From NCBI GenBank assembly GCA_039566865.1, contig CM076947.1, forward strand, positions 21,887,501 through 21,951,500: a DNA stretch of 64,000 nucleotides. The letters are read 5' to 3'. Made by a program: the position numbers and the translations under genes. Below the pieces are notes generated by a model that was not told the DNA's origin, did no database searches, and saw only the letters and a program-made list of their open reading frames with translations. The first letter of the stretch is position 1. Every line of letters starts with the position of its first letter. Below, in pieces: positions 1 through 64,000 of the stretch. This DNA comes from Aurelia coerulea (lineage: Eukaryota; Cnidaria; Scyphozoa; Semaeostomeae; Ulmaridae).

Positions 1-2
1 AA

Positions 3-15897: not shown

Positions 15898-15917
15898 GAG
15901 TTTCTCTGCCTTAATGG

Positions 15918-40037: not shown

Positions 40038-43000
40038 GCTGAATATCTCTGCTCTTAAAATACTTACAGAGTTCTCAATTACCTTTTTGAACTCAGCGTT
40101 CAATTTTGCATGGGAACATTGCTATTAGAAATCAATTGATGAGTTTCTCTGCCTTAATGGAATAGATGCTTTTCGGTGGTACTGATTCTGTACCAAATTC
40201 TAGCATCTTGTGCAATCTGTTTAAAGCTCAATATCTCTGCTCTTAAAATACTTACAGAGTTCTCAATGACTTTTTTGAACTCAGCGTTTAATGATGCATT
40301 GGAACATTGCTATTAGAAATCAATTGATGAGTTTCTCTGCCTTAATGGAATAGATGCTTTTCGGTGGTAGTGATTCTGTACCAAATTCTCGCATCTATTG
40401 CAATCTGTTTAAAGCTCAATATCTCTGTTCTTAAAATACTTACAGAGTTCTGATTGACTTTTTTGAACTCAGCGTTCAATTTTGCATCGGAGCATTGCTA
40501 TTAGAAATCAATTGATGAGTTTCTCTGCCTTAATGGAATAGATGCTTTTCGGTGGTAGTGATTCTGTACGAAATTCTCGCATCTATTGCAATCTGTTTAA
40601 AGCTCAATATCTCTGTTCTTAAAATACGTACAGAGTTCTCAATGACTTTTTTGAACTCAGCGTTTAATTTTGCATCGGAACATTGCTATTAAAAATCAAT
40701 TGATGAGTTTCTCTGCCTTAATGGAATAGATGCTTTTCGGTGGTAGTGATTCTGTACCAAATTCTCGCATCTATTGCAATCTGTTTAAAGCTCAATATCT
40801 CTGTTCTTAAAATACGTACAGAGTTCTGATTGACTTTTTTGAACTCAGCGTTTAATTTTGCATCGGAACGTTGCTATTAAAAGTCAATTGATGAGTTTCT
40901 CTGCCTTAATGGAATAGATGCTTTTCGGTGGTAGTGATTCTGTACCAAATTCTCGCATCTATTGCAATCTGTTTAAAGCTCAATATCTCTGCTCTTAAAA
41001 TACGTACAGAGTTCTCAATGACGTTTTTGAACTCAGCGTTCAATTTTGCATCGGAGCATTGCTATTAGAAATCAATTGATGAGTTTCTCTGCCTTAATGG
41101 AATAGATGCTTTTCGGTGGTAGTGATTCTGTACCAAATTCTCGCATCAATTGCAATCTGTTTAAAGCTCAATATCTCTGCTCTTAAAATACTTACAGAGT
41201 TCTGATTGACGTTTTTGAACTCAGCGTTTAATTTTGCATCGAAACATTGCTATTAAAAATCAATTGATGAGTTTCTCTGCCTTATTGGAATAGATGCTTT
41301 TCGGTGGTAGTGATTCTGTACCAAATTCTCGCATCTATTGCAATCTGTTTAAAGCTCAATATCTCTGTTCTTAAAATACTTACTGAGTTCTGATTGACTT
41401 TTTTGAACTCAGCGTTTAATTTTGCATCGGAACATTGCTATTAAAAGTAAATTGATGAGTTTCTCTGCCTTAATGGAATAGATGCTTTTCGGTGGTAGTG
41501 ATTCTGTACCAAATTCTCGCATCTATTGCAATCTGTTTAAAGCTCAATATCTCTGCTCTTAAAATACGTACAGAGTTCTCAATGACTTTTTTGAACTCAC
41601 CGTTCAATTTTGCATCGGAGCATTGCTATTAGAAATCAATTGATGAGTTTCTCTGCCTTAATGGAATAGATGCTTTTCGGTGGTAGTGATTCTGTACGAA
41701 ATTCTCGCATCTATTGCAATCTGTTTAAAGCTCAATATCTCTGTTCTTAAAATACGTACAGAGTTCTGATTGACTTTTTTGAACTCAGCGTTTAATTTTG
41801 CATCGGAACGTTGCTATTAAAAGTCAATTGATGAGTTTCTCTGCCTTAATGGAATAGATGCTTTTCGGTGGTAGTGATTCTGTACCAAAATCTCGCATCT
41901 ATTGCAATCTGTTTAAAGCTCACTATCTCTGCTCTTAAAATACTTACAGAGTTCTCAATTACCTTTTTGAACTCAGCGTTCAATTTTGCATGGGAACATT
42001 GCTATTAGAAATCAATTGATGAGTTTCTCTGCCTTAATGGAATAGATGCTTTTCGGTGGTACTGATTCTGTACCAAATTCTCGCATCTATTGCAATCTGT
42101 TTAAAGCTCAATATCTCTGCTCTTAAAATACTTACAGAGTTCTCAATGACTTTTTTGAACTCAGCGTTTAATTTTGCATCGGAACATTGCTATTAAAAAT
42201 CAATTGATGAGTTTCTCTGCCTTAATGGAATAGATGCTTTTCGGTGGTAGTGATTCTGTACCAAATTCTCGCATCTATTGCAATCTGTTTAAAGCTCAAT
42301 ATCTCTGTTCTTAAAATACGTACAGAGTTCTGATTGACTTTTTTGAACTCAGCGTTTAATTTTGCATCGGAACGTTGCTATTAAAAGTCAATTGATGAGT
42401 TTCTCTGCCTTAATGGAATAGATGCTTTTCGGTGGTAGTGATTCTGTACCAAATTCTCGCATCTATTGCAATCTGTTTAAAGCTCAATATCTCTGCTCTT
42501 AAAATACGTACAGAGTTCTCAATGACTTTTTTGAACTCAACGTTCAATTTTGCATCGGAGCATTGCTATTAGAAATCAATTGATGAGTTTCTCTGCCTTA
42601 ATGGAATAGATGCTTTTCGGTGGTAGTGATTCTGTACCAAATTCTCGCATCTATTGCAATCTGTTTAAAGCTCAATATCTCTGTTCTTAAAATACTTACA
42701 GAGTTCTGATTGACTTTTTTGAACTCAGCGTTCAATTTTGCATCGGAGCATTGCTATTAGAAATCAATTGATGAGTTTCTCTGCCTTAATGGAATAGATG
42801 CTTTTCGGTGGTAGTGATTCTGTACGAAATTCTCGCATCTATTGCAATCTGTTTAAAGCTCAATATCTCTGTTCTTAAAATGCGTACAGAGTTTTCAATG
42901 ACTTTTTTGAACTCAGCGTTTAATTTTGCATCGGAACATTGCTATTAAAAATCAATTGATGTGTTTCTCTGCCTTAATGGAATAGATGCTTTTCGGTGGT

Positions 43001-43797
43001 AGTGATTCTGTACCAAATTCTCGCATCTATTGCAATCTGTTTAAAGCTCAATATCTCTGTTCTTAAAATACTTACAGAGTTCTGATTGACTTTTTTGAAC
43101 TCAGCGTTCAATTTTGCATCGGAACGTTGCTATTAAAAGTCAATTGATGAGTTTCTCTGCCTTAATGGAATAGATGCTTTTCGGTGGTAGTGATTCTGTA
43201 CGAAATTCTCGCATCTATTGCAATCTGTTTAAAGCTCAATATCTCTGTTCTTAAAATACTTACAGAGTTCTGATTGACTTTTTTGAACTCAGCGTTTAAT
43301 TTTGCATCGGAACGTTGCTATTAAAAGTCAATTGATGAGTTTCTCTGCCTTAATGGAATAGATGCTTTTCGGTGGTAGTGATTCTGTACCAAATTCTCGC
43401 ATCTATTGTAATCTGTTTAAAGCTCAACATCTCTGCTCTTAAAATACTTACAGAGTTCTCAATGACTTTTTTGAACTCACCGTTCAATTTTGCATCGGAG
43501 CATTGCTATTAGAAATCAATTGATGAGTTTCTCTGCCTTAATGGAATAGATGCTTTTCGGTGGTAGTGATTCTGTACCAAATTCTCGCATCTATTGCAAT
43601 CTGTTTAAAGCTCAATATCTCTGCTCTTAAAATACGTACAGAGTTCTGATTGACTTTTTTGAACTCAGCGTTTAATGATGCATCGGAACATTGCTATTAA
43701 AGATCAATTGATGAGTTTCTCTGCCTTAATGGAATAGATGCTTTTCGGTGGTAGTGATTCTGTACCAAATTCTCGCATCTATTGCAATCTGTTTAAA
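40038..43797. repeat. Twenty monomers, diverged continuation of the 9-mer with A/B copies
   Basis: The TCAATTACC/CATGGG monomer recurs at 40075 and then 41955 (1880 bp, ten monomers), so the 9-mer register is kept once and then broken. The first monomer ends with TTCTAGCATCTTGTGC (40198-40213), which alters the right arm of the inverted repeat. Others are ATGATGCATTGG near 40292, CTTATTGG near 41281, TTACTGAG near 41382, AAAAGTAAATTG near 41444, ATGCGTACAG near 42879 and GATGTGTTTC near 42957. ATACGTAC becomes rare toward the right end. Confidence 0.78.
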
Positions 43798-44549
43798 GCT
43801 CAATATCTCTGTTCTTAAAATACTTACAGAGTTCTGATTGACTTTTTGGAACTCAACGTTTAATTTTGCATCGGAACGTTGCTATTAAAAGTCAATTGAT
43901 GAGTTTCTCTGCCTTAATGGAATAGATGCTTTTCGGTGGTAGTGATTCTGTACCAAATTCTCGCATCTATTGCAATCTGTTTAAAGCTCAATATCTCTGC
44001 TGTTAAAATACTTACAGAGTTTTGATTGACTTTTTTGAACTCAGCGTTCAATTTTGCATCGGAGCATTGCTATTAGAAATCAATTGATGAGTTTCTCTGC
44101 CTTAATGGAATAGATGCTTTTCGGTGGTAGTGATTCTGTACCAAATTCTCGCATCTATTGCAATCTGTTTAAAGCTCAATATCTCTGTTCTTAAAATACT
44201 TACAGAGTTCTGATTGACTTTTTGGAACTCAACGTTTAATTTTGCATCGGAACGTTGCTATTAAAAGTCAATTGATGAGTTTCTCTGCCTTAATGGAATA
44301 GATGCTTTTCGGTGGTAGTGATTCTGTACCAAATTCTCGCATCTATTGCAATCTGTTTAAAGCTCAATATCTCTGCTGTTAAAATACTTACAGAGTTTTG
44401 ATTGACTTTTTTGAACTCAGCGTTCAATTTTGCATCGGAGCATTGCTATTAGAAATCAATTGATGAGTTTCTCTGCCTTAATGGAATAGATGCTTTTCGG
44501 TGGTAGTGATTCTGTACCAAATTCTCGCATCTATTGCAATCTGTTTAAA
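43798..44549. repeat. Two tandem copies of a 376-bp dimer
   Basis: The first member has TGTTC, CTTTTTGGAACTCAACG, ACGTTG and AAAAGTC. The second has TGCTGTTAAAATAC, GAGTTTTGATTGAC, GCGTTCAA, GAGCATT and AGAAATC. The pair at 43798-44173 is repeated at 44174-44549 with no difference that I can see. Nearly the same pair is tandem again at 47369-48120 with CAGCG instead of CAACG. Confidence 0.9.
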
Positions 44550-47368
44550 GCTCAATATCTCTGTTCTTAAAATACTTACAGAGTTCTGATTGACTTTTTT
44601 GAACTCAGCGTTTAACTTTGCATGGGAACATTGCTATTAGAAATCAATTGATGAGTTTCTCTGCCTTAATGGAATAGATGCTTTTCGGTGGTAGTGATTC
44701 TGTACCAAATTCTCGCTTCTATTGCAATCTGTTTAAAGCTCAATATCTCTGCTCTTAAAATACTTACAGAGTTCTGATTGACTTTTTTGAACTCAGCGTT
44801 TAATGATGCATCGGAACATTGCTATTAAAAATCAATTGATGAGATTCTCTGCCTTAATGGAATAGATGCTTTTCGGTGGTAGTGATTCTGTACCAAATTC
44901 TCGCATCTATTGCAATCTGTTTAAAGCTCAATATCTCTGCTCTTAAAATACGTACAGAGTTCTGATTGACTTTTTTGAACTCAGCGTTTAATTTTGCATC
45001 GGAACGTTGCTATTAAAAGTCAATTGATGAGTTTCTCTGCCTTAATGGAATAGATGCTTTTCGGTGGTAGTGATTCTGTACGAAATTCTCGCATCTCTTG
45101 CAATCTGTTTAAAGCTCAATATCTCTGCTCTTAAAATACTTACAGAGTTCTGATTGACTTTTTTGAAGTCAGCGTTTAATTTTGCATCGGAACATTGCTA
45201 TTAAAAATCAATTGATGAGTTTCTCTGCCTTAATGGAATAGATGCTTTTCGGTGGTAGTGATTCTGCACCAAATTCTCGCTTCTTTTGCAATCTGTTTAA
45301 AGCTCAATATCTCTGCTCTTAAAATACTTACAGAGTTCTGATTGACTTTTTTGAACTCAGCGTTTAATTTTGCATCGGAACATTGCTATTAAAAGTCAAT
45401 TGATGAGTTTCTCTGCCTTAATGGAATAGATGCTTTTCGGTGGTAGTGATTCTGTAGGAAATTCTCGCATCTATTGCAATCTGTTTAAAGCTCAATATCT
45501 CTGTTCTTAAAATACTTACAGAGTTCTGATTGACTTTTTTGAACTCAGCGTTTAATTTTGCATCGGAACGTTGCTATTAAAAGTCAATTGATGAGTTTCT
45601 CTGCCTTAATGGAATAGATGCTTTTCGGTGGTAGTGATTCTGTACCAAATTCTCGCATCTATTGTAATCTGTTTAAAGCTCAACATCTCTTCTCTTAAAA
45701 TACTTACAGAGTTCTCAATGACTTTTTTGAACTCACCGTTCAATTTTGCATCGGAACATTGCTATTAGAAATCAATTGATGAGTTTCTCTGCCTTAATGG
45801 AATAGATGCTTTTCGGTGGTAGTGATTCTGTACCAAATTCTCGCATCTATTGCAATCTGTTTAAAGCTCAATATCTGTGCTCTTAAAATACTTACAGAGT
45901 TCTCAATGACTTTTTTGAACTCAGCGTTCAATCTTGCATCGGAACATTGCTATTAGAAATCAATTGATGAGTTTCTCTGCCTTAATGGAATAGATGCTTT
46001 TCGGTGGTAGTGATTCTGTACCAAATTCTCGCATCTATTGCAATCTGTTTAAAGCTCAATATCTCTGCTCTTAAAATACTTACAGAGTTCTGATTGACTT
46101 TTTTGAACTCAGCGTTTAATTTTGCATCGGAACATTGCTATTAGAAATCAATTGATGAGTTTCTCTGCCTTAATGGAATAGATGCTTTTCGGTGGTAGTG
46201 ATTCTGTACCAAATTCTCGCATCTATTGCAATCTGTTTAAAGCTCAATATCTCTGTTCTTAAAATACTTACAGAGTTCTGATTGACTTTTTTGAACTCAG
46301 CGTTTAACTTTGCATGGGAACATTGCTATTAGAAATCAATTGATGAGTTTCTCTGCCTTAATGGAATAGATGCTTTTCGGTGGTAGTGATTCTGTACCAA
46401 ATTCTCGCATCTATTGCAATCTGTTTAAAGCTCAATATCTCTGCTGTTAAAATACTTACAGAGTTTTGATTGACTTTTTTGAACTCAGCGTTCAATTTTG
46501 CATCGGAGCATTGCTATTAGAAATCAATTGATGAGTTTCTCTGCCTTAATGGAATAGATGCTTTTCGGTGGTAGTGATTCTGTACCAAATTCTCGCATCT
46601 ATTGCAATCTGTTTAAAGCTCAATATCTCTGTTCTTAAAATACTTACAGAGTTCTGATTGACTTTTTTGAACTCAGCGTTTAACTTTGCATGGGAATATT
46701 GCTATTAGAAATAAATTGATGAGTTTCTCTGCCTTAATGGAATAGATGCTTTTCGGTGGTAGTGATTCTGTACCAAATTCTCGCTTCTATTGCAATCTGT
46801 TTAAAGCTCAATATCTCTGCTCTTAAAGCACTTACAGAGTTCTGATTGACTTTTTTGAACTCAGCGTTTAATTTTGCATCGGAACATTGCTATTAAAAGT
46901 CAATTGATGAGTTTCTCTGCCTTAATGGAATAGATGCTTTTCGGTGGTAGTGATTCTGTACGAAATTCTCGCATCTATTGCAATCTGTTTAAAGCTCAAT
47001 ATCTCTGCTCTTAAAATACTTACAGAGTTCTGATTGACTTTTTTGAACTCAGCGTTTAATGATGCATCGGAACATTGCTATTAAAAATCAATTGATGAGA
47101 TTCTCTGCCTTAATGGAATAGATGCTTTTCGGTGGTAGTGATTCTGTACCAAATTCTCGCATCTATTGCAATCTGTTTAAGCTCAATATCTCTGCTCTTA
47201 AAATACTTACAGAGTTTTGATTGACTTTTTTGAACTCAGCGTTTAATTTTGCATCGGAACGTTGCTATTAATAATCAATTGATGAGATTCTCTGCCTTAA
47301 TGGAATAGATGCTTTTCGGTGGTAGTGATTCTGTACCAAATTCTCGCATCTATTGCAATCTGTTTAAA
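44550..47368. repeat. Fifteen monomers carrying precursors of the right-end repeat
   Basis: Monomer types that later make up the 12-, 13- and 11-mers appear here in a different order: GTTTAACTTTGCATGGG (near 44609, 46309 and 46680), CTCGCTTCTATT, GATGAGATTCTC (near 44841) and ATTGTAATC with AACATC (near 45664-45684). One-off changes are GAAGTCAGCG near 45166, CTGCACC near 45266, CTGTAGG near 45452 and AAAGCACTTAC near 46826. CTGTTTAAGCTC at 47173-47184 lacks one A. Confidence 0.78.
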
Positions 47369-48120
47369 GCTCAATATCTCTGTTCTTAAAATACTTACAG
47401 AGTTCTGATTGACTTTTTGGAACTCAGCGTTTAATTTTGCATCGGAACGTTGCTATTAAAAGTCAATTGATGAGTTTCTCTGCCTTAATGGAATAGATGC
47501 TTTTCGGTGGTAGTGATTCTGTACCAAATTCTCGCATCTATTGCAATCTGTTTAAAGCTCAATATCTCTGCTGTTAAAATACTTACAGAGTTTTGATTGA
47601 CTTTTTTGAACTCAGCGTTCAATTTTGCATCGGAGCATTGCTATTAGAAATCAATTGATGAGTTTCTCTGCCTTAATGGAATAGATGCTTTTCGGTGGTA
47701 GTGATTCTGTACCAAATTCTCGCATCTATTGCAATCTGTTTAAAGCTCAATATCTCTGCTCTTAAAATACTTACAGAGTTTTGATTGACTTTTTGGAACT
47801 CAGCGTTTAATTTTGCATCGGAACGTTGCTATTAAAAGTCAATTGATGAGTTTCTCTGCCTTACTGGAATAGATGCTTTTCGGTGGTAGTGATTCTGTAC
47901 CAAATTCTCGCATCTATTGCAATCTGTTTAAAGCTCAATATCTCTGCTGTTAAAATACTTACAGAGTTTTGATTGACTTTTTTGAACTCAGCGTTCAATT
48001 TTGCATCGGAGCATTGCTATTAGAAATCAATTGATGAGTTTCTCTGCCTTAATGGAATAGATGCTTTTCGGTGGTAGTGATTCTGTACCAAATTCTCGCA
48101 TCTATTGCAATCTGTTTAAA
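47369..48120. repeat. Second tandem pair of the 376-bp dimer
   Basis: Copies at 47369-47744 and 47745-48120 have the CTTTTTGGAACTC/AAAAGTC monomer followed by the TGCTGTTAAAA/GAGTTTTGATTGAC monomer, as in 43798-44549. The first members differ slightly between the two copies (TGTTC with GTTCTGATT against TGCTC with GTTTTGATT, and TTAATGG against TTACTGG). The two dimer loci are 3571 bp apart, 19 monomers minus one base. Confidence 0.85.
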
Positions 48121-50240
48121 GCTCAATATCTCTGCTCTTAAAATACTTACAGAGTTTTGATTGACTTTTTTGAACTCAGCGTTTAATGATGCATCGGAAC
48201 ATTGCTATTAAAATCAATTGATGAGATTCTCTGCCTTAATGGAATAGATGCTTTTCGGTGGTAGTGATTCTGTACCAAATTCTCGCATCTATTGCAATCT
48301 GTTTAAAGCTCAATATCTCTGCTCTTAAAATACTTACAGAGTTCTTAATGACTTTTTTGAACTCACCGTTCAATTTTGCATCGGAGCATTGCCATTAGAA
48401 ATCAATTGATGAGTTTCTCTGCCTTAATGGAATAGATGCTTTTCGGTGGTAGTGATTCTGTACCAAATTCTCGCATCTATTGCAATCTGTTTAAAGCTCA
48501 ATATCTCTGTTCTTAAAATACTTACAGAGTTCTGATTGACTTTTTTGAACTCAGCGTTTAATGATGCATCGGAACATTGCTATTAAAGATCAATTGATGA
48601 GTTTCTCTGCCTTAATGGAATAGATGCTTTTCGGTGGTAGTGATTCTGTACCAAATTCTCGCATCTATTGCAATCTATTTAAAGCTCAATATCTCTGTTC
48701 TTAAAATACTTACAGAGTTCTGATTGACTTTTTGGAACTCAGCGTTTAATTTGCATCGGAACGTTGCTATTAAAAGTCAATTGATGAGTTTCTCTGCCTT
48801 AATGGAATAGATGCTTTTCGGTGGTAGTGATTCTGTACCAAATTCTCGCATCTATTGCAATCTGTTTAAAGCTCAATATCTCTGCTGTTAAAATACTTAC
48901 AGAGTTCTCAATGACTTTTTTGAACTCACCGTTCAATTTTGCATCGGAGCATTGCTATTAGAAATCAATTGATGAGTTTCTCTGCCTTAATGGAATAGAT
49001 GCTTTTCGGTGGTAGTGATTCTGTACCAAATTCTCGCATCTATTGCAATCTGTTTAAAGCTCAATATCTCTGCTCTTAAAATACTTACAGAGTTCTGATT
49101 GACTTTTTTGAACTCAGCGTTTAACTTTGCATGGGAACATTGCTATTAGAAATCAATTGATGAGTTTCTCTGCCTTAATGGAATAGATGCTTTTCGGTGG
49201 TAGTGATTCTGTACCAAATTCTCGCTTCTATTGCAATCTGTTTAAAGCTCAATATCTCTGCTCTTAAAATACTTACAGAGTTCTGATTGACTTTATTGAA
49301 CTCAGCGTTTAATTTTGCATCGGAACATTGCTATTAAAAGTCAATTGATGAGTTTCTCTGCCTTAATGGAATAGATGCTTTTCGGTGGTAGTGATTCTGT
49401 ACGAAATTCTCGCATCTATTGCAATCTGTTTAAAGCTCAATATCTCTGCTCTTAAAATACTTACAGAGTTCTCATTGACTTTTTTGAACTCAGCGTTTAA
49501 TGATGCATCGGAACATTGCTATTAATAATCAATTGATGAGATTCTCTGCCTTAATGGAATAGATGCTTTTCGGTGGTAGTGATTCTGTACCAAATTCTCG
49601 CATCTATTGCAATCTATTTAAAGCTCAATATCTCTGCTCTTAAAATACTTACAGAGTTCTGATTGACTTTTTTGAACTCAGCGTTTAATTTTGCATCGGA
49701 ACATTGCTATTAAAAATCAATTGATGGGTCTCTCTGCCTTAATGGAATAGATGCTTTTCGGTGGTAGTGATTCTGTACGAAATTCTCGCATCTATTGCAA
49801 TCTGTTTAAAGCTTAATATCTCTGCTCTTAAAATACTTACAGAGTTCTGATTGACTTTTTTGAACTCAGCGTTTAACTTTGCATGGGAACATTGCTATTA
49901 GAAATCAATTGATGAGTTTCTCTGCCTTAATGGAATAGATGCTTTTCGGTGGTAGTGATTCTGTACCAAATTCTCGCTTCTATTGCAATCTCTTTAAAGC
50001 TCAATATCTCTGCTCTTAAAATACTTACAGAGTTCTGATTGACTTTTTTGAACTCAGCGTTTAATTTTGCATCGGAACATTGCTATTAAAAGTCAATTGA
50101 TGAGTTTCTCTGCCTTAATGGAATAGATGCTTTTCGGTGGTAGTGATTCTGTACGAAATTCTCGCATCTATTGCAATCTGTTTAAAGCTCAATATCTCTG
50201 CTCTTAAAATACTTAAAGAGTTCTGATTGACTTTTTTGAA
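48121..50240. repeat. Monomers leading into the right-end higher-order repeat
   Basis: The part from 49449 to 50240 matches 51711-52502 marker for marker at 2262-bp spacing: CTCATTGAC at 49471 and 51733, and TTGATGGGTC at 49721 and 51983. The end of a 12-monomer unit therefore already lies here before the first complete unit. One-base losses occur near 48201-48214 (GCTATTAAAATC) and 48748-48753 (TTTAATTTGC). GACTTTATTGAAC near 49289 and CTCTTTAAAG near 49990 are private. Confidence 0.8.
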
Positions 50241-52502
50241 CTCAGCGTCAGCGTTTAATGATGCATCGGAACATTGCTATTAAAAATCAATTGATGAGAT
50301 TCTCTGCCTTAATGGAATAGATGCTTTTCGGTGGTAGTGATTCTGTACCAAATTCTCGCATCTATTGCAATCTATTTAAAGCTCAATATCTCTGCTCTTA
50401 AAATACTTACAGAGTTCTGATTGACTTTTTTGAACTCAGCGTTTAATTTTGCATCGGAACATTGCTATTAGAAATCAATTGATGAGTGTCTCTGCCTTAA
50501 TGGAATAGATGCTTTTCGGTGGTAGTGATTCTGTACGAAATTCTCGCATCTATTGCAATCTGTTTAAAGCTCAATATCTCTGCTCTTAAAATACTTACAG
50601 AGTTCTGATTGACTTTTTTGAACTCAGCGTTTAATGATGCATCGGAACATTGCTATTAAAAATCAATTGATGAGTTTCTCTGCCTTAATGGAATAGATGC
50701 TTTTCGGTGGTAGTGATTCTGTACGAAATTCTCGCATCTATTGCAATCTGTTTAAAGCTCAATAACTCTGTTCTTAAAATACTTACAGAGTTCTGATTGA
50801 CTTTTTTGAACTCAGCGTTTAATTTTGCATCGGAACGTTGCTATTAAAAGTCAATTGATGAGTTTCTCTGCCTTAATGGAATAGATGCTTTTCGGTGGTA
50901 GTGATTCTGTACCAAATTCTCGCATCTATTGTAATCTGTTTAAAGCTCAACATCTCTGCTCTTAAAATACTTACAGAGTTCTGATTGACTTTTTTGAACT
51001 CACCGTTCAATTTTGCATCGGAGCATTGCTATTAGAAATCAATTGATGAGTTTCTCTGCCTTAATGGAATAGATGCTTTTCGGTGGTAGTGATTCTGTAC
51101 CAAATTCTCGCATCTATTGCAATCTGTTTAAAGCTCAATATCTCTGCTCTTAAAATACTTACAGAGTTCTGATTGACTTTTTTGAACTCAGCGTTTAATG
51201 ATGCATCGGAACATTGCTATTAAAGATCAATTGATGAGTTTCTCTGCCTTAATGGAATAGATGCTTTTCGGTGGTAGTGATTCTGTACCAAATTCTCGCA
51301 TCTATTGCAATCTGTTTAAAGCTCAATATCTCTGTTCTTAAAATACTTACAGAGTTCTGATTGACTTTTTGGAACTCAGCGTTTAATTTTGCATCGGAAC
51401 GTTGCTATTAAAAGTCAATTGATGAGTTTCTCTGCCTTAATGGAATAGATGCTTTTCGGTGGTAGTGATTCTGTACCAAATTCTCGCATCTATTGCAATC
51501 TGTTTAAAGCTCAATATCTCTGCTCTTAAAATACTTACAGAGTTCTGATTGACTTTTTTGAACTCAGCGTTTAACTTTGCATGGGAACATTGCTATTAGA
51601 AATCAATTGATGAGTTTCTCTGCCTTAATGGAATAGATGCTTTTCGGTGGTAGTGATTCTGTACGAAATTCTCGCATCTATTGCAATCTGTTTAAAGCTC
51701 AATATCTCTGCTCTTAAAATACTTACAGAGTTCTCATTGACTTTTTTGAACTCAGCGTTTAATGATGCATCGGAACATTGCTATTAATAATCAATTGATG
51801 AGATTCTCTGCCTTAATGGAATAGATGCTTTTCGGTGGTAGTGATTCTGTACCAAATTCTCGCATCTATTGCAATCTATTTAAAGCTCAATATCTCTGCT
51901 CTTAAAATACTTACAGAGTTCTGATTGACTTTTTGGAACTCAGCGTTTAATTTTGCATCGGAACATTGCTATTAAAAATCAATTGATGGGTCTCTCTGCC
52001 TTAATGGAATAGATGCTTTTCGGTGGTAGTGATTCTGTACGAAATTCTCGCATCTATTGCAATCTGTTTAAAGCTTAATATCTCTGCTCTTAAAATACTT
52101 ACAGAGTTCTGATTGACTTTTTTGAACTCAGCGTTTAACTTTGCATGGGAACATTGCTATTAGAAATCAATTGATGAGTTTCTCTGCCTTAATGGAATAG
52201 ATGCTTTTCGGTGGTAGTGATTCTGTACCAAATTCTCGCTTCTATTGCAATCTGTTTAAAGCTCAATATCTCTGCTCTTAAAATACTTACAGAGTTCTGA
52301 TTGACTTTTTTGAACTCAGCGTTTAATTTTGCATCGGAACATTGCTATTAAAAGTCAATTGATGAGTTTCTCTGCCTTAATGGAATAGATGCTTTTCGGT
52401 GGTAGTGATTCTGTACGAAATTCTCGCATCTATTGCAATCTGTTTAAAGCTCAATATCTCTGCTCTTAAAATACTTAAAGAGTTCTGATTGACTTTTTTG
52501 AA
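50241..52502. repeat. 12-monomer higher-order repeat (2262 bp)
   Basis: Bounded by the duplicated CAGCGT hexamers at 50243 and 52505: 12 x 188 plus 6. Monomers one to eight match those of the following 13-mer (ATGATGC/GAGATTCTC; CTGTACGAAA; AATAACTCTG; ATTGTAATC/AACATC; CCGTTCAA; AAAGATC; CTTTTTGG; AACTTTGCATGGG). Monomers nine to eleven differ (CTCATTGAC with TAATAATC; GATGGGTCTC with AAAGCTTAATATC; a second AACTTTGCATGGG copy with CGCTTCT). It looks like an earlier form of the unit. Confidence 0.9.
50243..50254. repeat. CAGCGT hexamer duplication, unit marker 1 of 6
   Basis: The tract reads CTCAGCGTCAGCGTTTAATG, where other monomers have CTCAGCGTTTAATG: a 6-bp tandem duplication of CAGCGT, giving a 194-bp monomer. 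It is always linked upstream to CTTAAAGAG (C30A) and downstream to ATGATGC and GAGATTCTC. The other five are at 52505, 54955, 57029, 59479 and 61553. It occurs nowhere left of 50 kb, so it arose once and spread with the unit. Confidence 0.95.
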
Positions 52503-54952
52503 CTCAGCGTCAGCGTTTAATGATGCATCGGAACATTGCTATTAAAAATCAATTGATGAGATTCTCTGCCTTAATGGAATAGATGCTTTTCGGTGGTAGT
52601 GATTCTGTACCAAATTCTCGCATCTATTGCAATCTATTTAAAGCTCAATATCTCTGCTCTTAAAATACTTACAGAGTTCTGATTGACTTTTTTGAACTCA
52701 GCGTTTAATTTTGCATCGGAACATTGCTATTAAAAATCAATTGATGAGTCTCTCTGCCTTAATGGAATAGATGCTTTTCGGTGGTAGTGATTCTGTACGA
52801 AATTCTCGCATCTATTGCAATCTGTTTAAAGCTCAATATCTCTGCTCTTAAAATACTTACAGAGTTCTGATTGACTTTTTTGAACTCAGCGTTTAATGAT
52901 GCATCGGAACATTGCTATTAAAAATCAATTGATGAGTTTCTCTGCCTTAATGGAATAGATGCTTTTCGGTGGTAGTGATTCTGTACGAAATTCTCGCATC
53001 TATTGCAATCTGTTTAAAGCTCAATAACTCTGTTCTTAAAATACTTACAGAGTTCTGATTGACTTTTTTGAACTCAGCGTTTAATTTTGCATCGGAACGT
53101 TGCTATTAAAAGTCAATTGATGAGTTTCTCTGCCTTAATGGAATAGATGCTTTTCGGTGGTAGTGATTCTGTACCAAATTCTCGCATCTATTGTAATCTG
53201 TTTAAAGCTCAACATCTCTGCTCTTAAAATACTTACAGAGTTCTGATTGACTTTTTTGAACTCACCGTTCAATTTTGCATCGGAGCATTGCTATTAGAAA
53301 TCAATTGATGAGTTTCTCTGCCTTAATGGAATAGATGCTTTTCGGTGGTAGTGATTCTGTACCAAATTCTCGCATCTATTGCAATCTGTTTAAAGCTCAA
53401 TATCTCTGCTCTTAAAATACTTACAGAGTTCTGATTGACTTTTTTGAACTCAGCGTTTAATGATGCATCGGAACATTGCTATTAAAGATCAATTGATGAG
53501 TTTCTCTGCCTTAATGGAATAGATGCTTTTCGGTGGTAGTGATTCTGTACCAAATTCTCGCATCTATTGCAATCTGTTTAAAGCTCAATATCTCTGTTCT
53601 TAAAATACTTACAGAGTTCTGATTGACTTTTTGGAACTCAGCGTTTAATTTTGCATCGGAACGTTGCTATTAAAAGTCAATTGATGAGTTTCTCTGCCTT
53701 AATGGAATAGATGCTTTTCGGTGGTAGTGATTCTGTACCAAATTCTCGCATCTATTGCAATCTGTTTAAAGCTCAATATCTCTGCTCTTAAAATACTTAC
53801 AGAGTTCTGATTGACTTTTTTGAACTCAGCGTTTAACTTTGCATGGGAACATTGCTATTAGAAATCAATTGATGAGTTTCTCTGCCTTAATGGAATAGAT
53901 GCTTTTCGGTGGTAGTGATTCTGTACCAAATTCTCGCTTCTATTGCAATCTGTTTAAAGCTCAATATCTCTGCTCTTAAAATACTTACAGAATTCTCAAT
54001 GACTTTTTTGAACTCAGCGTTTAATTTTGCATCGGAACATTGCTATTAAAAATCAATTGATGAGTTTCTCTGCCTTAATGGAATAGATGCTTTTCGGTGG
54101 TAGTGATTCTGTACGAAATTCTCGCATCTATTGCAATCTGTTTAAAGCTCAATATATCTGCTCTTAAAATACTTACAGAGTTCTGATTGACTTTTTTGAA
54201 CTCAGCGTTTAATGATACATCGGAACATTGCTATTAAAAATCAATTGATGAGATTCTCTGCCTTAATGGAATAGATGCTTTTCGGTGGTAGTGATTCTGT
54301 ACCAAATTCTCGCATCTATTGCAATCTGTTTAAAGCTCAATATCTCTGTTCTTAAAATACTTACAGAGTTCTGATTGACTTTTTTGAACTCAGCGTTTAA
54401 TTTTGCATCGGAACGTTGCTATTAAAAGTCAATTGATGAGTTTCTCTGCCTTAATGGAATAGATGCTTTTCGGTGGTAGTGATTCTGTACCAAATTCTCG
54501 CATCCATTGCAATCTGTTTAAAGCTCAATATCTCTGCTCTTAAAATACTTACAGAGTTCTCAATGACTTTTTTGAACTCACCGTTCAATTTTGCATCGGA
54601 GCATTGCTATTAAAAATCAATTGATGAGTTTCTCTGCCTTAATGGAATAGATGCTTTTCGGTGGTAGTGATTCTGTACCAAATTCTCGCATCTATTGCAA
54701 TCTATTTAAAGCTCAATATCTCTGCTCTTAAAATACTTACAGAGTTCTGATTGACTTTTTTGAACTCAGCGTTTAATTTTGCATCGGAACATTGCTATTA
54801 AAAGTCAATTGATGAGTTTCTCTGCCTTAATGGAATAGATGCTTTTCGGTGGTAGTGATTCTGTACGAAATTCTCGCATCTATTGCAATCTGTTTAAAGC
54901 TCAATATCTCTGCTCTTAAAATACTTAAAGAGTTCTGATTGACTTTTTTGAA
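52503..54952. repeat. 13-monomer unit, first copy (2450 bp)
   Basis: Runs between hexamer insertions at 52505 and 54955: 13 x 188 plus 6. It lacks three substitutions found in all later units (C at 53155, A at 53519, C at 53363; later copies have A, G and A). It has C at 54364, where the two later 13-mers have G. Monomers nine and ten (53959-54334) carry CAGAATTCTC, AATATATCTG and ATGATACATC and are absent from the 11-mers. Confidence 0.92.
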
Positions 54953-57026
54953 CTCAGCGTCAGCGTTTAATGATGCATCGGAACATTGCTATTAAAAATC
55001 AATTGATGAGATTCTCTGCCTTAATGGAATAGATGCTTTTCGGTGGTAGTGATTCTGTACCAAATTCTCGCATCTATTGCAATCTATTTAAAGCTCAATA
55101 TCTCTGCTCTTAAAATACTTACAGAGTTCTGATTGACTTTTTTGAACTCAGCGTTTAATTTTGCATCGGAACATTGCTATTAAAAATCAATTGATGAGTC
55201 TCTCTGCCTTAATGGAATAGATGCTTTTCGGTGGTAGTGATTCTGTACGAAATTCTCGCATCTATTGCAATCTGTTTAAAGCTCAATATCTCTGCTCTTA
55301 AAATACTTACAGAGTTCTGATTGACTTTTTTGAACTCAGCGTTTAATGATGCATCGGAACATTGCTATTAAAAATCAATTGATGAGTTTCTCTGCCTTAA
55401 TGGAATAGATGCTTTTCGGTGGTAGTGATTCTGTACGAAATTCTCGCATCTATTGCAATCTGTTTAAAGCTCAATAACTCTGTTCTTAAAATACTTACAG
55501 AGTTCTGATTGACTTTTTTGAACTCAGCGTTTAATTTTGCATCGGAACGTTGCTATTAAAAGTCAATTGATGAGTTTCTCTGCCTTAATGGAATAGATGC
55601 TTTTAGGTGGTAGTGATTCTGTACCAAATTCTCGCATCTATTGTAATCTGTTTAAAGCTCAACATCTCTGCTCTTAAAATACTTACAGAGTTCTGATTGA
55701 CTTTTTTGAACTCACCGTTCAATTTTGCATCGGAGCATTGCTATTAGAAATCAATTGATGAGTTTCTCTGCCTTAATGGAATAGATGCTTTTCGGTGGTA
55801 GTGATTCTGTACAAAATTCTCGCATCTATTGCAATCTGTTTAAAGCTCAATATCTCTGCTCTTAAAATACTTACAGAGTTCTGATTGACTTTTTTGAACT
55901 CAGCGTTTAATGATGCATCGGAACATTGCTATTAAAGATCAATTGATGAGTTTCTCTGCCTTAATGGAGTAGATGCTTTTCGGTGGTAGTGATTCTGTAC
56001 CAAATTCTCGCATCTATTGCAATCTGTTTAAAGCTCAATATCTCTGTTCTTAAAATACTTACAGAGTTCTGATTGACTTTTTGGAACTCAGCGTTTAATT
56101 TTGCATCGGAACGTTGCTATTAAAAGTCAATTGATGAGTTTCTCTGCCTTAATGGAATAGATGCTTTTCGGTGGTAGTGATTCTGTACCAAATTCTCGCA
56201 TCTATTGCAATCTGTTTAAAGCTCAATATCTCTGCTCTTAAAATACTTACAGAGTTCTGATTGACTTTTTTGAACTCAGCGTTTAACTTTGCATGGGAAC
56301 ATTGCTATTAGAAATCAATTGATGAGTTTCTCTGCCTTAATGGAATAGATGCTTTTCGGTGGTAGTGATTCTGTACCAAATTCTCGCTTCTATTGCAATC
56401 TGTTTAAAGCTCAATATCTCTGTTCTTAAAATACTTACAGAGTTCTGATTGACTTTTTTGAACTCAGCGTTTAATTTTGCATCGGAACGTTGCTATTAAA
56501 AGTCAATTGATGAGTTTCTCTGCCTTAATGGAATAGATGCTTTTCGGTGGTAGTGATTCTGTACCAAATTCTCGCATCCATTGCAATCTGTTTAAAGCTC
56601 AATATCTCTGCTCTTAAAATACTTACAGAGTTCTCAATGACTTTTTTGAACTCACCGTTCAATTTTGCATCGGAGCATTGCTATTAAAAATCAATTGATG
56701 AGTTTCTCTGCCTTAATGGAATAGATGCTTTTCGGTGGTAGTGATTCTGTACCAAATTCTCGCATCTATTGCAATCTATTTAAAGCTCAATATCTCTGCT
56801 CTTAAAATACTTACAGAGTTCTGATTGACTTTTTTGAACTCAGCGTTTAATTTTGCATCGGAACATTGCTATTAAAAGTCAATTGATGAGTTTCTCTGCC
56901 TTAATGGAATAGATGCTTTTCGGTGGTAGTGATTCTGTACGAAATTCTCGCATCTATTGCAATCTGTTTAAAGCTCAATATCTCTGCTCTTAAAATACTT
57001 AAAGAGTTCTGATTGACTTTTTTGAA
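54953..57026. repeat. 11-monomer unit, first copy (2074 bp)
   Basis: 11 x 188 plus 6, bounded by hexamers at 54955 and 57029. It equals the 13-mer with monomers nine and ten removed: CTCGCTTCTATT is followed directly by the TGTTC/CTGATT/ACGTTG monomer. It carries the derived bases at TTTTAGGTGG (55605), ACAAAATTC (near 55811) and GGAGTAGATG (near 55968). With the preceding 13-mer it forms a 24-mer. Confidence 0.93.
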
Positions 57027-59476
57027 CTCAGCGTCAGCGTTTAATGATGCATCGGAACATTGCTATTAAAAATCAATTGATGAGATTCTCTGCCTTAATG
57101 GAATAGATGCTTTTCGGTGGTAGTGATTCTGTACCAAATTCTCGCATCTATTGCAATCTATTTAAAGCTCAATATCTCTGCTCTTAAAATACTTACAGAG
57201 TTCTGATTGACTTTTTTGAACTCAGCGTTTAATTTTGCATCGGAACATTGCTATTAAAAATCAATTGATGAGTCTCTCTGCCTTAATGGAATAGATGCTT
57301 TTCGGTGGTAGTGATTCTGTACGAAATTCTCGCATCTATTGCAATCTGTTTAAAGCTCAATATCTCTGCTCTTAAAATACTTACAGAGTTCTGATTGACT
57401 TTTTTGAACTCAGCGTTTAATGATGCATCGGAACATTGCTATTAAAAATCAATTGATGAGTTTCTCTGCCTTAATGGAATAGATGCTTTTCGGTGGTAGT
57501 GATTCTGTACGAAATTCTCGCATCTATTGCAATCTGTTTAAAGCTCAATAACTCTGTTCTTAAAATACTTACAGAGTTCTGATTGACTTTTTTGAACTCA
57601 GCGTTTAATTTTGCATCGGAACGTTGCTATTAAAAGTCAATTGATGAGTTTCTCTGCCTTAATGGAATAGATGCTTTTAGGTGGTAGTGATTCTGTACCA
57701 AATTCTCGCATCTATTGTAATCTGTTTAAAGCTCAACATCTCTGCTCTTAAAATACTTACAGAGTTCTGATTGACTTTTTTGAACTCACCGTTCAATTTT
57801 GCATCGGAGCATTGCTATTAGAAATCAATTGATGAGTTTCTCTGCCTTAATGGAATAGATGCTTTTCGGTGGTAGTGATTCTGTACAAAATTCTCGCATC
57901 TATTGCAATCTGTTTAAAGCTCAATATCTCTGCTCTTAAAATACTTACAGAGTTCTGATTGACTTTTTTGAACTCAGCGTTTAATGATGCATCGGAACAT
58001 TGCTATTAAAGATCAATTGATGAGTTTCTCTGCCTTAATGGAGTAGATGCTTTTCGGTGGTAGTGATTCTGTACCAAATTCTCGCATCTATTGCAATCTG
58101 TTTAAAGCTCAATATCTCTGTTCTTAAAATACTTACAGAGTTCTGATTGACTTTTTGGAACTCAGCGTTTAATTTTGCATCGGAACGTTGCTATTAAAAG
58201 TCAATTGATGAGTTTCTCTGCCTTAATGGAATAGATGCTTTTCGGTGGTAGTGATTCTGTACCAAATTCTCGCATCTATTGCAATCTGTTTAAAGCTCAA
58301 TATCTCTGCTCTTAAAATACTTACAGAGTTCTGATTGACTTTTTTGAACTCAGCGTTTAACTTTGCATGGGAACATTGCTATTAGAAATCAATTGATGAG
58401 TTTCTCTGCCTTAATGGAATAGATGCTTTTCGGTGGTAGTGATTCTGTACCAAATTCTCGCTTCTATTGCAATCTGTTTAAAGCTCAATATCTCTGCTCT
58501 TAAAATACTTACAGAGTTCTCAATGACTTTTTTGAACTCAGCGTTTAATTTTGCATCGGAACATTGCTATTAAAAATCAATTGATGAGTTTCTCTGCCTT
58601 AATGGAATAGATGCTTTTCGGTGGTAGTGATTCTGTACGAAATTCTCGCATCTATTGCAATCTGTTTAAAGCTCAATATATCTGCTCTTAAAATACTTAC
58701 AGAGTTCTGATTGACTTTTTTGAACTCAGCGTTTAATGATACATCGGAACATTGCTATTAAAAATCAATTGATGAGATTCTCTGCCTTAATGGAATAGAT
58801 GCTTTTCGGTGGTAGTGATTCTGTACCAAATTCTCGCATCTATTGCAATCTGTTTAAAGCTCAATATCTCTGTTCTTAAAATACTTAGAGAGTTCTGATT
58901 GACTTTTTTGAACTCAGCGTTTAATTTTGCATCGGAACGTTGCTATTAAAAGTCAATTGATGAGTTTCTCTGCCTTAATGGAATAGATGCTTTTCGGTGG
59001 TAGTGATTCTGTACCAAATTCTCGCATCCATTGCAATCTGTTTAAAGCTCAATATCTCTGCTCTTAAAATACTTACAGAGTTCTCAATGACTTTTTTGAA
59101 CTCACCGTTCAATTTTGCATCGGAGCATTGCTATTAAAAATCAATTGATGAGTTTCTCTGCCTTAATGGAATAGATGCTTTTCGGTGGTAGTGATTCTGT
59201 ACCAAATTCTCGCATCTATTGCAATCTATTTAAAGCTCAATATCTCTGCTCTTAAAATACTTACAGAGTTCTGATTGACTTTTTTGAACTCAGCGTTTAA
59301 TTTTGCATCGGAACATTGCTATTAAAAGTCAATTGATGAGTTTCTCTGCCTTAATGGAATAGATGCTTTTCGGTGGTAGTGATTCTGTACGAAATTCTCG
59401 CATCTATTGCAATCTGTTTAAAGCTCAATATCTCTGCTCTTAAAATACTTAAAGAGTTCTGATTGACTTTTTTGAA
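57027..59476. repeat. 13-monomer unit, second copy (2450 bp)
   Basis: This starts the second 24-mer, 4524 bp after 52503. It differs from the first 13-mer at 57679, 57887 and 58043, where it has the derived base, and has G at 58888 (CTTAGAGAG). Its extra monomer pair lies at 58483-58858. It lacks the CAGAATTCTC change of the first copy and reads CAGAGTTCTC. Confidence 0.93.
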
Positions 59477-61550
59477 CTCAGCGTCAGCGTTTAATGATGC
59501 ATCGGAACATTGCTATTAAAAATCAATTGATGAGATTCTCTGCCTTAATGGAATAGATGCTTTTCGGTGGTAGTGATTCTGTACCAAATTCTCGCATCTA
59601 TTGCAATCTATTTAAAGCTCAATATCTCTGCTCTTAAAATACTTACAGAGTTCTGATTGACTTTTTTGAACTCAGCGTTTAATTTTGCATCGGAACATTG
59701 CTATTAAAAATCAATTGATGAGTCTCTCTGCCTTAATGGAATAGATGCTTTTCGGTGGTAGTGATTCTGTACGAAATTCTCGCATCTATTGCAATCTGTT
59801 TAAAGCTCAATATCTCTGCTCTTAAAATACTTACAGAGTTCTGATTGACTTTTTTGAACTCAGCGTTTAATGATGCATCGGAACATTGCTATTAAAAATC
59901 AATTGATGAGTTTCTCTGCCTTAATGGAATAGATGCTTTTCGGTGGTAGTGATTCTGTACGAAATTCTCGCATCTATTGCAATCTGTTTAAAGCTCAATA
60001 ACTCTGTTCTTAAAATACTTACAGAGTTCTGATTGACTTTTTTGAACTCAGCGTTTAATTTTGCATCGGAACGTTGCTATTAAAAGTCAATTGATGAGTT
60101 TCTCTGCCTTAATGGAATAGATGCTTTTAGGTGGTAGTGATTCTGTACCAAATTCTCGCATCTATTGTAATCTGTTTAAAGCTCAACATCTCTGCTCTTA
60201 AAATACTTACAGAGTTCTGATTGACTTTTTTGAACTCACCGTTCAATTTTGCATCGGAGCATTGCTATTAGAAATCAATTGATGAGTTTCTCTGCCTTAA
60301 TGGAATAGATGCTTTTCGGTGGTAGTGATTCTGTACAAAATTCTCGCATCTATTGCAATCTGTTTAAAGCTCAATATCTCTGCTCTTAAAATACTTACAG
60401 AGTTCTGATTGACTTTTTTGAACTCAGCGTTTAATGATGCATCGGAACATTGCTATTAAAGATCAATTGATGAGTTTCTCTGCCTTAATGGAGTAGATGC
60501 TTTTCGGTGGTAGTGATTCTGTACCAAATTCTCGCATCTATTGCAATCTGTTTAAAGCTCAATATCTCTGTTCTTAAAATACTTACAGAGTTCTGATTGA
60601 CTTTTTGGAACTCAGCGTTTAATTTTGCATCGGAACGTTGCTATTAAAAGTCAATTGATGAGTTTCTCTGCCTTAATGGAATAGATGCTTTTCGGTGGTA
60701 GTGATTCTGTACCAAATTCTCGCATCTATTGCAATCTGTTTAAAGCTCAATATCTCTGCTCTTAAAATACTTACAGAGTTCTGATTGACTTTTTTGAACT
60801 CAGCGTTTAACTTTGCATGGGAACATTGCTATTAGAAATCAATTGATGAGTTTCTCTGCCTTAATGGAATAGATGCTTTTCGGTGGTAGTGATTCTGTAC
60901 CAAATTCTCGCTTCTATTGCAATCTGTTTAAAGCTCAATATCTCTGTTCTTAAAATACTTACAGAGTTCTGATTGACTTTTTTGAACTCAGCGTTTAATT
61001 TTGCATCGGAACGTTGCTATTAAAAGTCAATTGATGAGTTTCTCTGCCTTAATGGAATAGATGCTTTTCGGTGGTAGTGATTCTGTACCAAATTCTCGCA
61101 TCCATTGCAATCTGTTTAAAGCTCAATATCTCTGCTCTTAAAATACTTACAGAGTTCTCAATGACTTTTTTGAACTCACCGTTCAATTTTGCATCGGAGC
61201 ATTGCTATTAAAAATCAATTGATGAGTTTCTCTGCCTTAATGGAATAGATGCTTTTCGGTGGTAGTGATTCTGTACCAAATTCTCGCATCTATTGCAATC
61301 TATTTAAAGCTCAATATCTCTGCTCTTAAAATACTTACAGAGTTCTGATTGACTTTTTTGAACTCAGCGTTTAATTTTGCATCGGAACATTGCTATTAAA
61401 AGTCAATTGATGAGTTTCTCTGCCTTAATGGAATAGATGCTTTTCGGTGGTAGTGATTCTGTACGAAATTCTCGCATCTATTGCAATCTGTTTAAAGCTC
61501 AATATCTCTGCTCTTAAAATACTTAAAGAGTTCTGATTGACTTTTTTGAA
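59477..61550. repeat. 11-monomer unit, second copy (2074 bp)
   Basis: Repeats 54953-57026 at exactly 4524 bp with no difference found by eye. It includes the derived TTTTAGGTGG, ACAAAATTC and GGAGTAGATG sites and CTTACAGAG in the monomer after the missing pair. Confidence 0.93.
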
Positions 61551-64000
61551 CTCAGCGTCAGCGTTTAATGATGCATCGGAACATTGCTATTAAAAATCAA
61601 TTGATGAGATTCTCTGCCTTAATGGAATAGATGCTTTTCGGTGGTAGTGATTCTGTACCAAATTCTCGCATCTATTGCAATCTATTTAAAGCTCAATATC
61701 TCTGCTCTTAAAATACTTACAGAGTTCTGATTGACTTTTTTGAACTCAGCGTTTAATTTTGCATCGGAACATTGCTATTAAAAATCAATTGATGAGTCTC
61801 TCTGCCTTAATGGAATAGATGCTTTTCGGTGGTAGTGATTCTGTACGAAATTCTCGCATCTATTGCAATCTGTTTAAAGCTCAATATCTCTGCTCTTAAA
61901 ATACTTACAGAGTTCTGATTGACTTTTTTGAACTCAGCGTTTAATGATGCATCGGAACATTGCTATTAAAAATCAATTGATGAGTTTCTCTGCCTTAATG
62001 GAATAGATGCTTTTCGGTGGTAGTGATTCTGTACGAAATTCTCGCATCTATTGCAATCTGTTTAAAGCTCAATAACTCTGTTCTTAAAATACTTACAGAG
62101 TTCTGATTGACTTTTTTGAACTCAGCGTTTAATTTTGCATCGGAACGTTGCTATTAAAAGTCAATTGATGAGTTTCTCTGCCTTAATGGAATAGATGCTT
62201 TTAGGTGGTAGTGATTCTGTACCAAATTCTCGCATCTATTGTAATCTGTTTAAAGCTCAACATCTCTGCTCTTAAAATACTTACAGAGTTCTGATTGACT
62301 TTTTTGAACTCACCGTTCAATTTTGCATCGGAGCATTGCTATTAGAAATCAATTGATGAGTTTCTCTGCCTTAATGGAATAGATGCTTTTCGGTGGTAGT
62401 GATTCTGTACAAAATTCTCGCATCTATTGCAATCTGTTTAAAGCTCAATATCTCTGCTCTTAAAATACTTACAGAGTTCTGATTGACTTTTTTGAACTCA
62501 GCGTTTAATGATGCATCGGAACATTGCTATTAAAGATCAATTGATGAGTTTCTCTGCCTTAATGGAGTAGATGCTTTTCGGTGGTAGTGATTCTGTACCA
62601 AATTCTCGCATCTATTGCAATCTGTTTAAAGCTCAATATCTCTGTTCTTAAAATACTTACAGAGTTCTGATTGACTTTTTGGAACTCAGCGTTTAATTTT
62701 GCATCGGAAAGTTGCTATTAAAAGTCAATTGATGAGTTTCTCTGCCTTAATGGAATAGATGCTTTTCGGTGGTAGTGATTCTGTACCAAATTCTCGCATC
62801 TATTGCAATCTGTTTAAAGCTCAATATCTCTGCTCTTAAAATACTTACAGAGTTCTGATTGACTTTTTTGAACTCAGCGTTTAACTTTGCATGGGAACAT
62901 TGCTATTAGAAATCAATTGATGAGTTTCTCTGCCTTAATGGAATAGATGCTTTTCGGTGGTAGTGATTCTGTACCAAATTCTCGCTTCTATTGCAATCTG
63001 TTTAAAGCTCAATATCTCTGCTCTTAAAATACTTACAGAGTTCTCAATGACTTTTTTGAACTCAGCGTTTAATTTTGCATCGGAACATTGCTATTAAAAA
63101 TCAATTGATGAGTTTCTCTGCCTTAATGGAATAGATGCTTTTCGGTGGTAGTGATTCTGTACGAAATTCTCGCATCTATTGCAATCTGTTTAAAGCTCAA
63201 TATATCTGCTCTTAAAATACTTACAGAGTTCTGATTGACTTTTTTGAACTCAGCGTTTAATGATACATCGGAACATTGCTATTAAAAATCAATTGATGAG
63301 ATTCTCTGCCTTAATGGAATAGATGCTTTTCGGTGGTAGTGATTCTGTACCAAATTCTCGCATCTATTGCAATCTGTTTAAAGCTCAATATCTCTGTTCT
63401 TAAAATACTTAGAGAGTTCTGATTGACTTTTTTGAACTCAGCGTTTAATTTTGCATCGGAACGTTGCTATTAAAAGTCAATTGATGAGTTTCTCTGCCTT
63501 AATGGAATAGATGCTTTTCGGTGGTAGTGATTCTGTACCAAATTCTCGCATCCATTGCAATCTGTTTAAAGCTCAATATCTCTGCTCTTAAAATACTTAC
63601 AGAGTTCTCAATGACTTTTTTGAACTCACCGTTCAATTTTGCATCGGAGCATTGCTATTAAAAATCAATTGATGAGTTTCTCTGCCTTAATGGAATAGAT
63701 GCTTTTCGGTGGTAGTGATTCTGTACCAAATTCTCGCATCTATTGCAATCTATTTAAAGCTCAATATCTCTGCTCTTAAAATACTTACAGAGTTCTGATT
63801 GACTTTTTTGAACTCAGCGTTTAATTTTGCATCGGAACATTGCTATTAAAAGTCAATTGATGAGTTTCTCTGCCTTAATGGAATAGATGCTTTTCGGTGG
63901 TAGTGATTCTGTACGAAATTCTCGCATCTATTGCAATCTGTTTAAAGCTCAATATCTCTGCTCTTAAAATACTTAAAGAGTTCTGATTGACTTTTTTGAA
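61551..64000. repeat. 13-monomer unit, third copy (2450 bp), reaches the window end
   Basis: It matches 57027-59476 base for base by eye except A at 62710 (CGGAAAGTTG), where 58186 has C. Its extra monomer pair lies at 63007-63382. The window stops exactly where the next hexamer-bearing CTCAGCGTCA would begin (64001), so the array must continue and an 11-mer is predicted next. Confidence 0.92.

What the first reader, a model, noticed from the sequence alone, without database searches (positions are those of the whole stretch)
52503..64000. Alternating 13-mer/11-mer forming a 24-monomer, 4524-bp super-repeat
The CAGCGT hexamer marker recurs at spacings of 2450, 2074, 2450 and 2074 bp, and then 2450 bp to the window edge. 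The 11-mer is the 13-mer minus monomers nine and ten. Copies 4524 bp apart differ at only a few bases, so the amplified unit is the 24-mer, not the 11- or 13-mer separately. Such a strictly kept composite unit points to recent, large-step amplification.
Basis: seen in the sequence. Interest (0 to 1): 0.8.

Follow-up and report, generated by a model that had tools for sequence, protein, structure and literature searches.

The report
Duplicated block in satellite DNA
In a 188-bp satellite DNA array, alternating 13-copy and 11-copy blocks are best explained by one recent tandem duplication of a 4.5-kb pair of blocks, a real but ordinary step in how such arrays grow, and the pattern stops just past the window.

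Summary
The whole window is one 188-bp satellite. The marker is the doubled hexamer CAGCGTCAGCGT, spacings 2262, 2450, 2074, 2450, 2074 bp. The 11-mer equals the 13-mer without monomers 9 and 10. Copies 4524 bp apart differ at 6 of 7222 positions.

The window's own contig was then read on both sides. The predicted 11-mer after 64000 is not there: the next unit has monomers 9 and 10 and then leaves the pattern. Lag-4524 identity ends at 65471. In about 209 kb of array this is the only lag-24 segment listed. So the 24-mer is a pair of units present twice, not a strictly kept super-repeat. Identity at 4524 bp does not itself single out the 24-mer, since lag 2074 is exact too; interleaving of a junction and one base does.

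Best reading: three out-of-register exchanges, of about 13, 11 and 24 monomers, near the end of an older block that also exists about 65-73 kb to the left. A known kind of event. Raw reads, organism and centromere function were not tested.

The parts
1..64000 (+). 188-bp satellite array filling the whole window (340.3 copies, 95% matches); the array runs on both sides, about -110752 to 97967 in window coordinates
   Evidence: Tandem Repeats Finder, longest period 500, one row; anchors from -110752 to 97779
49051..50178 (+). six monomers left of the first marker, nearest types 8-13-x-2-8-13
50179..52440 (+). 12-mer unit (2262 bp): types 1-8, then x-2-8-13
   Evidence: lag 12 run 49427-51688 against 51689-53950, mean 0.5 differences per monomer
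52441..54890 (+). first 13-mer (13-1), 2450 bp; 5 differences from the second
54891..56964 (+). first 11-mer (11-1), 2074 bp, identical to the second
56965..59414 (+). second 13-mer (13-2), 2450 bp; 1 difference from the third
59415..61488 (+). second 11-mer (11-2), 2074 bp
61489..63938 (+). third 13-mer (13-3), 2450 bp, complete
63939..64000 (+). first 62 bases of the terminal unit (B), which continues past the edge with monomers 1-10 and then leaves the pattern
52255..64000 (+). stretch repeating at lag 4524 (24 monomers), 6 mismatches in 7222 compared positions; past the edge the identity ends at 65471
54365..64000 (+). part of it with one mismatch in 5112 positions, explained by one 4524-bp tandem duplication
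56389..56422 (+). 34-bp zone in 11-1 within which the monomer 8|11 junction lies
   Evidence: prefix 210 and suffix 200 of 376 bases match the first 13-mer; coordinates worked out by hand
50243..50254 (+). doubled hexamer marker, first in the window
52505..52516 (+). doubled hexamer marker
54955..54966 (+). doubled hexamer marker
57029..57040 (+). doubled hexamer marker
59479..59490 (+). doubled hexamer marker
61553..61564 (+). doubled hexamer marker, last in the window (one more at 64003, outside)

Best explanation
This is a local, low-copy higher-order duplication inside a 188-bp satellite array of about 209 kb. Shown: an older block ended in a 13-mer (like 13-1) followed by a terminal unit B; the same arrangement exists in a related block 64-73 kb to the left. 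Inferred: out-of-register exchange between sister chromatids (or replication-based copying of the same reach) joined B-like monomers 1-10 to the end of 13-1, making a new 13-mer (step of 13 monomers); another joined B-like monomers 1-8 to monomers 11-13, making the 11-mer (step of 11, or a step of 13 followed by loss of two); a third copied the 11-mer with its neighbouring 13-mer (step of 24). Result: 13-11-13-11-13-B. Nothing here shows a function of the alternation.
For: Lag 4524 is exact over 54365-58185 and has 1 mismatch in 5112 positions to the edge, with one more mismatch (64485) before it breaks at 65471. The 8|11 junction (units 2, 4) and the private G at monomer 11 column 38 (units 3, 5; C in 13-1, the 11-mers and B) are interleaved, as one 11+13 duplication predicts. 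13-2 is a mosaic: monomers 1-10 equal B but for one base, while monomer 11 carries C at column 179 as 13-1 does, against T in B and in the three left units compared there. The last left unit carries three of the four B-like bases that separate 13-2 from 13-1 in monomers 4, 5, 6 and 9, so these bases are older than the duplication. Lag 2074 is exact over 11 monomers across the 8|11 junction. Another recent large step, 59 monomers, lies elsewhere in the array.
Against: The interleaving rests on two characters. Order of the five in-window 13/11 units alone is 1 of 10. Divergences of the steps are not distinguishable (1/5112 against 1/2074, Fisher p = 0.49), so their order is inferred. Gene conversion between units could give similar mosaics. 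The 11-mer may instead be a two-monomer loss. No raw reads were available.
Confidence: 0.82

Rival explanations
1. An ordinary mix of two length variants, copied one by one and kept alike by gene conversion; the regular order over five units is partly luck.
For: Alternation is 1 of 10 orders. Unit lengths around it are irregular: 12-mer before, a terminal 1-10 unit after, and 5, 14 and 13 monomers in the left block.
Against: Two characters are interleaved alike, and the two 11-mers are identical over 2074 bp; single-unit copying would need repeated identical events or conversion.
Confidence: 0.1
2. Assembly artefact: one 11+13 pair laid down twice, or haplotypes joined in tandem.
For: Copies differ at 1 of 5112 positions. 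No reads are held here.
Against: Copies are not wholly identical (58186). The pair is bounded on both sides by distinguishable units, 13-1 on the left and B on the right. 50179-66000 is about 16 kb, within reach of modern long reads (general knowledge).
Confidence: 0.08

Closest known systems
Human alpha-satellite higher-order repeats with structural variants, e.g. chromosome 8 with 4-, 7-, 8- and 11-monomer forms
   Same: [quoted passage not shown] on chromosome 8 the shorter forms derive from the 11-mer (PMC8099727, passages).
   Different: Monomer 188 bp; no CENP-B-like core within two substitutions in the window; monomers within the unit differ by 2-12 of 188 bases, against the 20-40% quoted for alpha satellite (PMC11050224, passages); no long array of the unit.
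Cascading and super higher-order repeats of human chromosome 15 and orangutan Y
   Same: Large units in which monomer types recur, and interspersed 25mer/26mer forms (PMC11050224, PMC12428378, passages).
   Different: Those arrays hold 12 to 429 copies in the passages seen; here the 24-mer is there twice plus a partial third.
Higher-order structure in centromere repeats of plants and animals
   Same: Clear cases in 76 of 171 species with Sanger data (PMC4053949, passages).
   Different: Its Sanger reads rarely showed units of three or more monomers, though PacBio reads of switchgrass showed six; '188 bp' is not in its main text; supplements not seen.

Membership tests
Satellite DNA array | head-to-tail monomers of near-constant length | tested here: met
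   TRF period 188; 322 of 339 spacings in the window are 188
Higher-order repeat (HOR) array | multi-monomer unit whose copies are more alike than monomers within it | tested here: met
   0.17 differences per monomer at lag 24 over 46 monomers against 2-12 between monomers of the 13-mer
Higher-order repeat (HOR) array | extended run of many copies of the unit | tested here: not met
   one lag-24 segment listed in the array of about 209 kb; identity ends at 65471. Filed therefore as a local higher-order duplication, not as a 24-mer HOR array
HOR structural variants | variants look like whole-monomer in/dels of a main unit | tested here: met
   11-mer = 13-mer minus 9 and 10; whether by loss or by duplication is open
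Cascading HOR | many canonical copies of a unit that repeats monomer types | tested here: not met
   11 of 13 types occur twice in a 13+11 pair, but the pair is there only twice
Primate alpha satellite | 171-bp monomer | tested here: not met
   188 bp
Primate alpha satellite | CENP-B box in some monomers | tested here: not met
   recalled core pattern: 0 matches in the window on either strand, also with up to two substitutions
Centromeric satellite | binds the centromeric histone / kinetochore | not testable with these tools
   needs CENP-A or CENH3 chromatin data

The most novel reading that the evidence does not exclude
The marker block is a local rearrangement hot spot. In two related blocks 64-73 kb apart the flanking monomers stay recognisable while the unit lengths differ (5, 14, 13, terminal against 12, 13, 11, 13, 11, 13, terminal), and in the window block monomer 8 has four different right neighbours. 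Some feature of this stretch may invite repeated exchange at the same spot.
Probability: 0.1. Interest if true: 0.4.

Novelty: new member of a known kind. Interest (0 to 1): 0.2.

Why it matters
A small, readable example of satellite growth: a handful of base differences, one junction and a related block elsewhere in the same array let the copying steps be traced. It also shows that exact identity at a long period does not by itself name the copied unit, and that a regular-looking alternation at a window edge can stop within 1.5 kb.

Tried and rejected
Long alternating 24-mer array, with its core right of the edge: my own first thought too; rejected by the flanking sequence. Simple +1/-1 exchange of the 12-mer into 13 + 11: rejected, the 12-mer has x-2-8-13 in place of 9-13. 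The plain hexamer as marker: 285 hits. A fixed step size: the array also has a 59-monomer (11092-bp) step. Coding origin: no closed ORF of 80 aa or more in the window under table 11. Rfam: none at gathering score in 52000-58000. CENP-B box: none in the window. An old 7-monomer period inside the 13-mer: weak; lag 7 has the lowest mean (5.92, others 6.75-8.90), but pairs at other lags are closer (2-13, 3-6, 7-11). Organism: not found. A 38-base pattern in viral contigs and a 25-base pattern in genome contigs gave 0; 2001 bases against phages and plasmids gave none; these collections are prokaryotic or viral. Papers: six 15- or 16-base strings, 0 papers; searches gave 0; one unrelated paper; one paper, whose 188-bp mention concerns a 77-bp repeat (PMC10587573, passages); one search listed 15, three of which I read in passages; one search listed 20 of 184 papers, none of the 20 with '188 bp', two of which I read in passages; listings only, none opened. 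Order-and-clade argument: my reasoning from recalled theory.

Full report
What is there. The whole 64-kb window is a single 188-bp satellite: one Tandem Repeats Finder row, 340.3 copies, 95% matches. A fuzzy anchor gave 340 sites; 322 of 339 spacings are 188 bp. Of 340 pieces, the last cut by the edge, 185 are distinct. Two monomers differ by 7.7 bases on average.

The finding. The plain hexamer has 285 + strand hits. The marker is its doubling, at 50243, 52505, 54955, 57029, 59479 and 61553, spacings 2262, 2450, 2074, 2450, 2074. The units hold 12, 13, 11, 13, 11 and 13 monomers. Monomer types, named after the first 13-mer, read from 49051: [8 13 x 2 8 13] [1-8 x 2 8 13] [1-13] [1-8 11-13] [1-13] [1-8 11-13] [1-13] (x is 4 differences from type 3). 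The 11-mer is the 13-mer without 9 and 10: 1 mismatch to the second 13-mer, 3 to the first, over 2074 bp; the next best pair costs 7 and 11. The 8|11 junction lies in a 34-bp zone, in register.

Identity at 4524 bp. From 52255 to the edge 6 of 7222 positions differ: five in the first 13-mer and 58186. Five of six within 1.2 kb is uneven (simulated p = 0.014). From 54365 on, 1 of 5112 differs. In 2000 shuffles of the last 81 monomers the longest lag-24 run was 4, against 38.

What identity does not prove. Lag 2074 has 0 mismatches over 54327-56400 and lag 2450 has 1 over 56401-58474. 1/5112 and 1/2074 do not differ (Fisher p = 0.49). Perfect alternation is 1 of 10 orders. So low divergence at 4524 bp does not single out the 24-mer.

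Beyond the edge. After four unanswered tries the genome search worked: the window is C5:21887501-21951500 of an unnamed assembly of 574161440 bases in 294 contigs. I took 120 kb to the left and up to 193500 (window coordinates) to the right. Satellite anchors run from -110752 to 97779, about 209 kb; monomers too diverged for the anchor would be missed, and one 755-bp gap lies at -100197. The reverse-strand anchor search, up to 93500, found none. The next doubled hexamer is at 64003 and none follows up to 193500. The unit that starts at 63939 (B) reads 1-8, 9, 10, then a monomer nearest type 7 (1 difference, also 1 from type 11), then other types at 2 to 5 differences. It is not the predicted 11-mer. 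Identity at lag 4524 has one more mismatch (64485) and breaks at 65471. Among the 36 segments listed over the array, one has lag 24: 46 monomers from 52253 (1045 of 1106 monomers usable).

A related block to the left. Doubled hexamers also lie at -15379, -14433, -11795 and -9345, spacings 946, 2638 and 2450. Its 13-mer differs from 13-1, 13-2 and 13-3 at 4, 9 and 10 of 2450 bases. No 11-mer was seen there. Its flanks match those of the window block, with lags from 349 monomers on the left side to 393 and 402 on the right, so a larger stretch was duplicated earlier.

Origin of the units. In 13-2, monomers 1-10 equal those of B but for one base, while monomer 11 has C at column 179 as in 13-1, against T in B and in the three left units compared. 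So 13-2 is a mosaic of B-like and 13-1-like parts, as a 13-monomer tandem duplication by exchange would give. Of the four bases that separate 13-2 from 13-1 in monomers 4, 5, 6 and 9, the last left unit has three (not the one in monomer 4), so these were there before the duplication. My earlier thought that they arose in the copies is thereby dropped. The 11-mer joins B-like 1-8 to 13-1-like 11-13; lag 11 is exact over 11 monomers across it. An 11-monomer duplication gives this in one step; loss of two monomers from a copied 13-mer is the alternative. The G at monomer 11 column 38 is in 13-2 and 13-3 and in none of 13-1, the 11-mers, B or the three left units compared. The junction in units 2 and 4 and this G in units 3 and 5 are interleaved, which fits one duplication of the pair (11-1, 13-2). 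This reasoning is mine and rests on two characters; no ages are given because the intervals overlap.

Setting. In the window, the mean distance to the nearest other monomer is 0.00-0.05 from 52823 on and 0.40-2.07 elsewhere. In the wider array another recent large step exists: 41 monomers at lag 59 (11092 bp), mean 0.20 differences, -65801 to -47002. So steps vary in size.

Comparison. Structural variants of HORs as whole-monomer in/dels (PMC9549924), mixed 4/7/8/11-mers (PMC8099727), cascading and interspersed units (PMC11050224, PMC12428378) and HOR structure in 76 of 171 species (PMC4053949) are in print (all seen as passages). This is a new instance of a known kind of event. It is not alpha satellite and not an extended 24-mer HOR array.

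With the flanks read, I raised the best explanation from 0.75 to 0.82, lowered the random-mix rival from 0.17 to 0.10, and replaced the bold reading of a long alternating array (0.15), now excluded, by a hot-spot reading at 0.10.

Limits.

Noticed in passing
window coordinates -65801 to -47002 (left of the window, in L016-L018): A recent 59-monomer step: 41 monomers match at lag 11092 bp with a mean of 0.20 differences.
   Followed up: partly
window coordinates -17135 to 1498 against 48488 to 77102: A large older duplication within the array: related monomer runs at lags of 349 to 402 monomers, including both marker blocks.
   Followed up: partly
7702-14658: A 20-monomer duplication: 7702-10898 matches 11463-14658 at lag 3761, mean 1.35 differences per monomer over 17 monomers.
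   Followed up: partly
36646-40969 and 26494-33637: Other local segments: lag 9 monomers (1692 bp, mean 1.0 over 14) and lag 27 monomers (5076 bp, mean 0.82 over 11).
   Followed up: partly
monomer columns 105-164 (anchor TGTTTAAAG), whole window: Variation is uneven: 75 of 1503 minor letters fall in this 60-column stretch, 480 expected if even; counting kinds of change, the most conserved 60-column stretch has permutation p = 0.007. 322 of 339 monomers used (those of 188 bp); related monomers count many times.
   Followed up: partly
whole window, 17 common variant columns of the monomer: 107 of 136 pairs of sites show all four combinations, so variants have been shuffled between monomers, yet columns 47 and 49 are nearly fully linked (G-T 204, C-A 111 of 322).
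   Followed up: partly
whole window: CpG is only mildly depleted (observed/expected 0.80).
   Followed up: no
49051-63938: Monomer 8 is followed by types 13, x, 9 or 11 at nine places in the block; two further type-8-like monomers lie outside it, at 44542 and 46234.
   Followed up: partly
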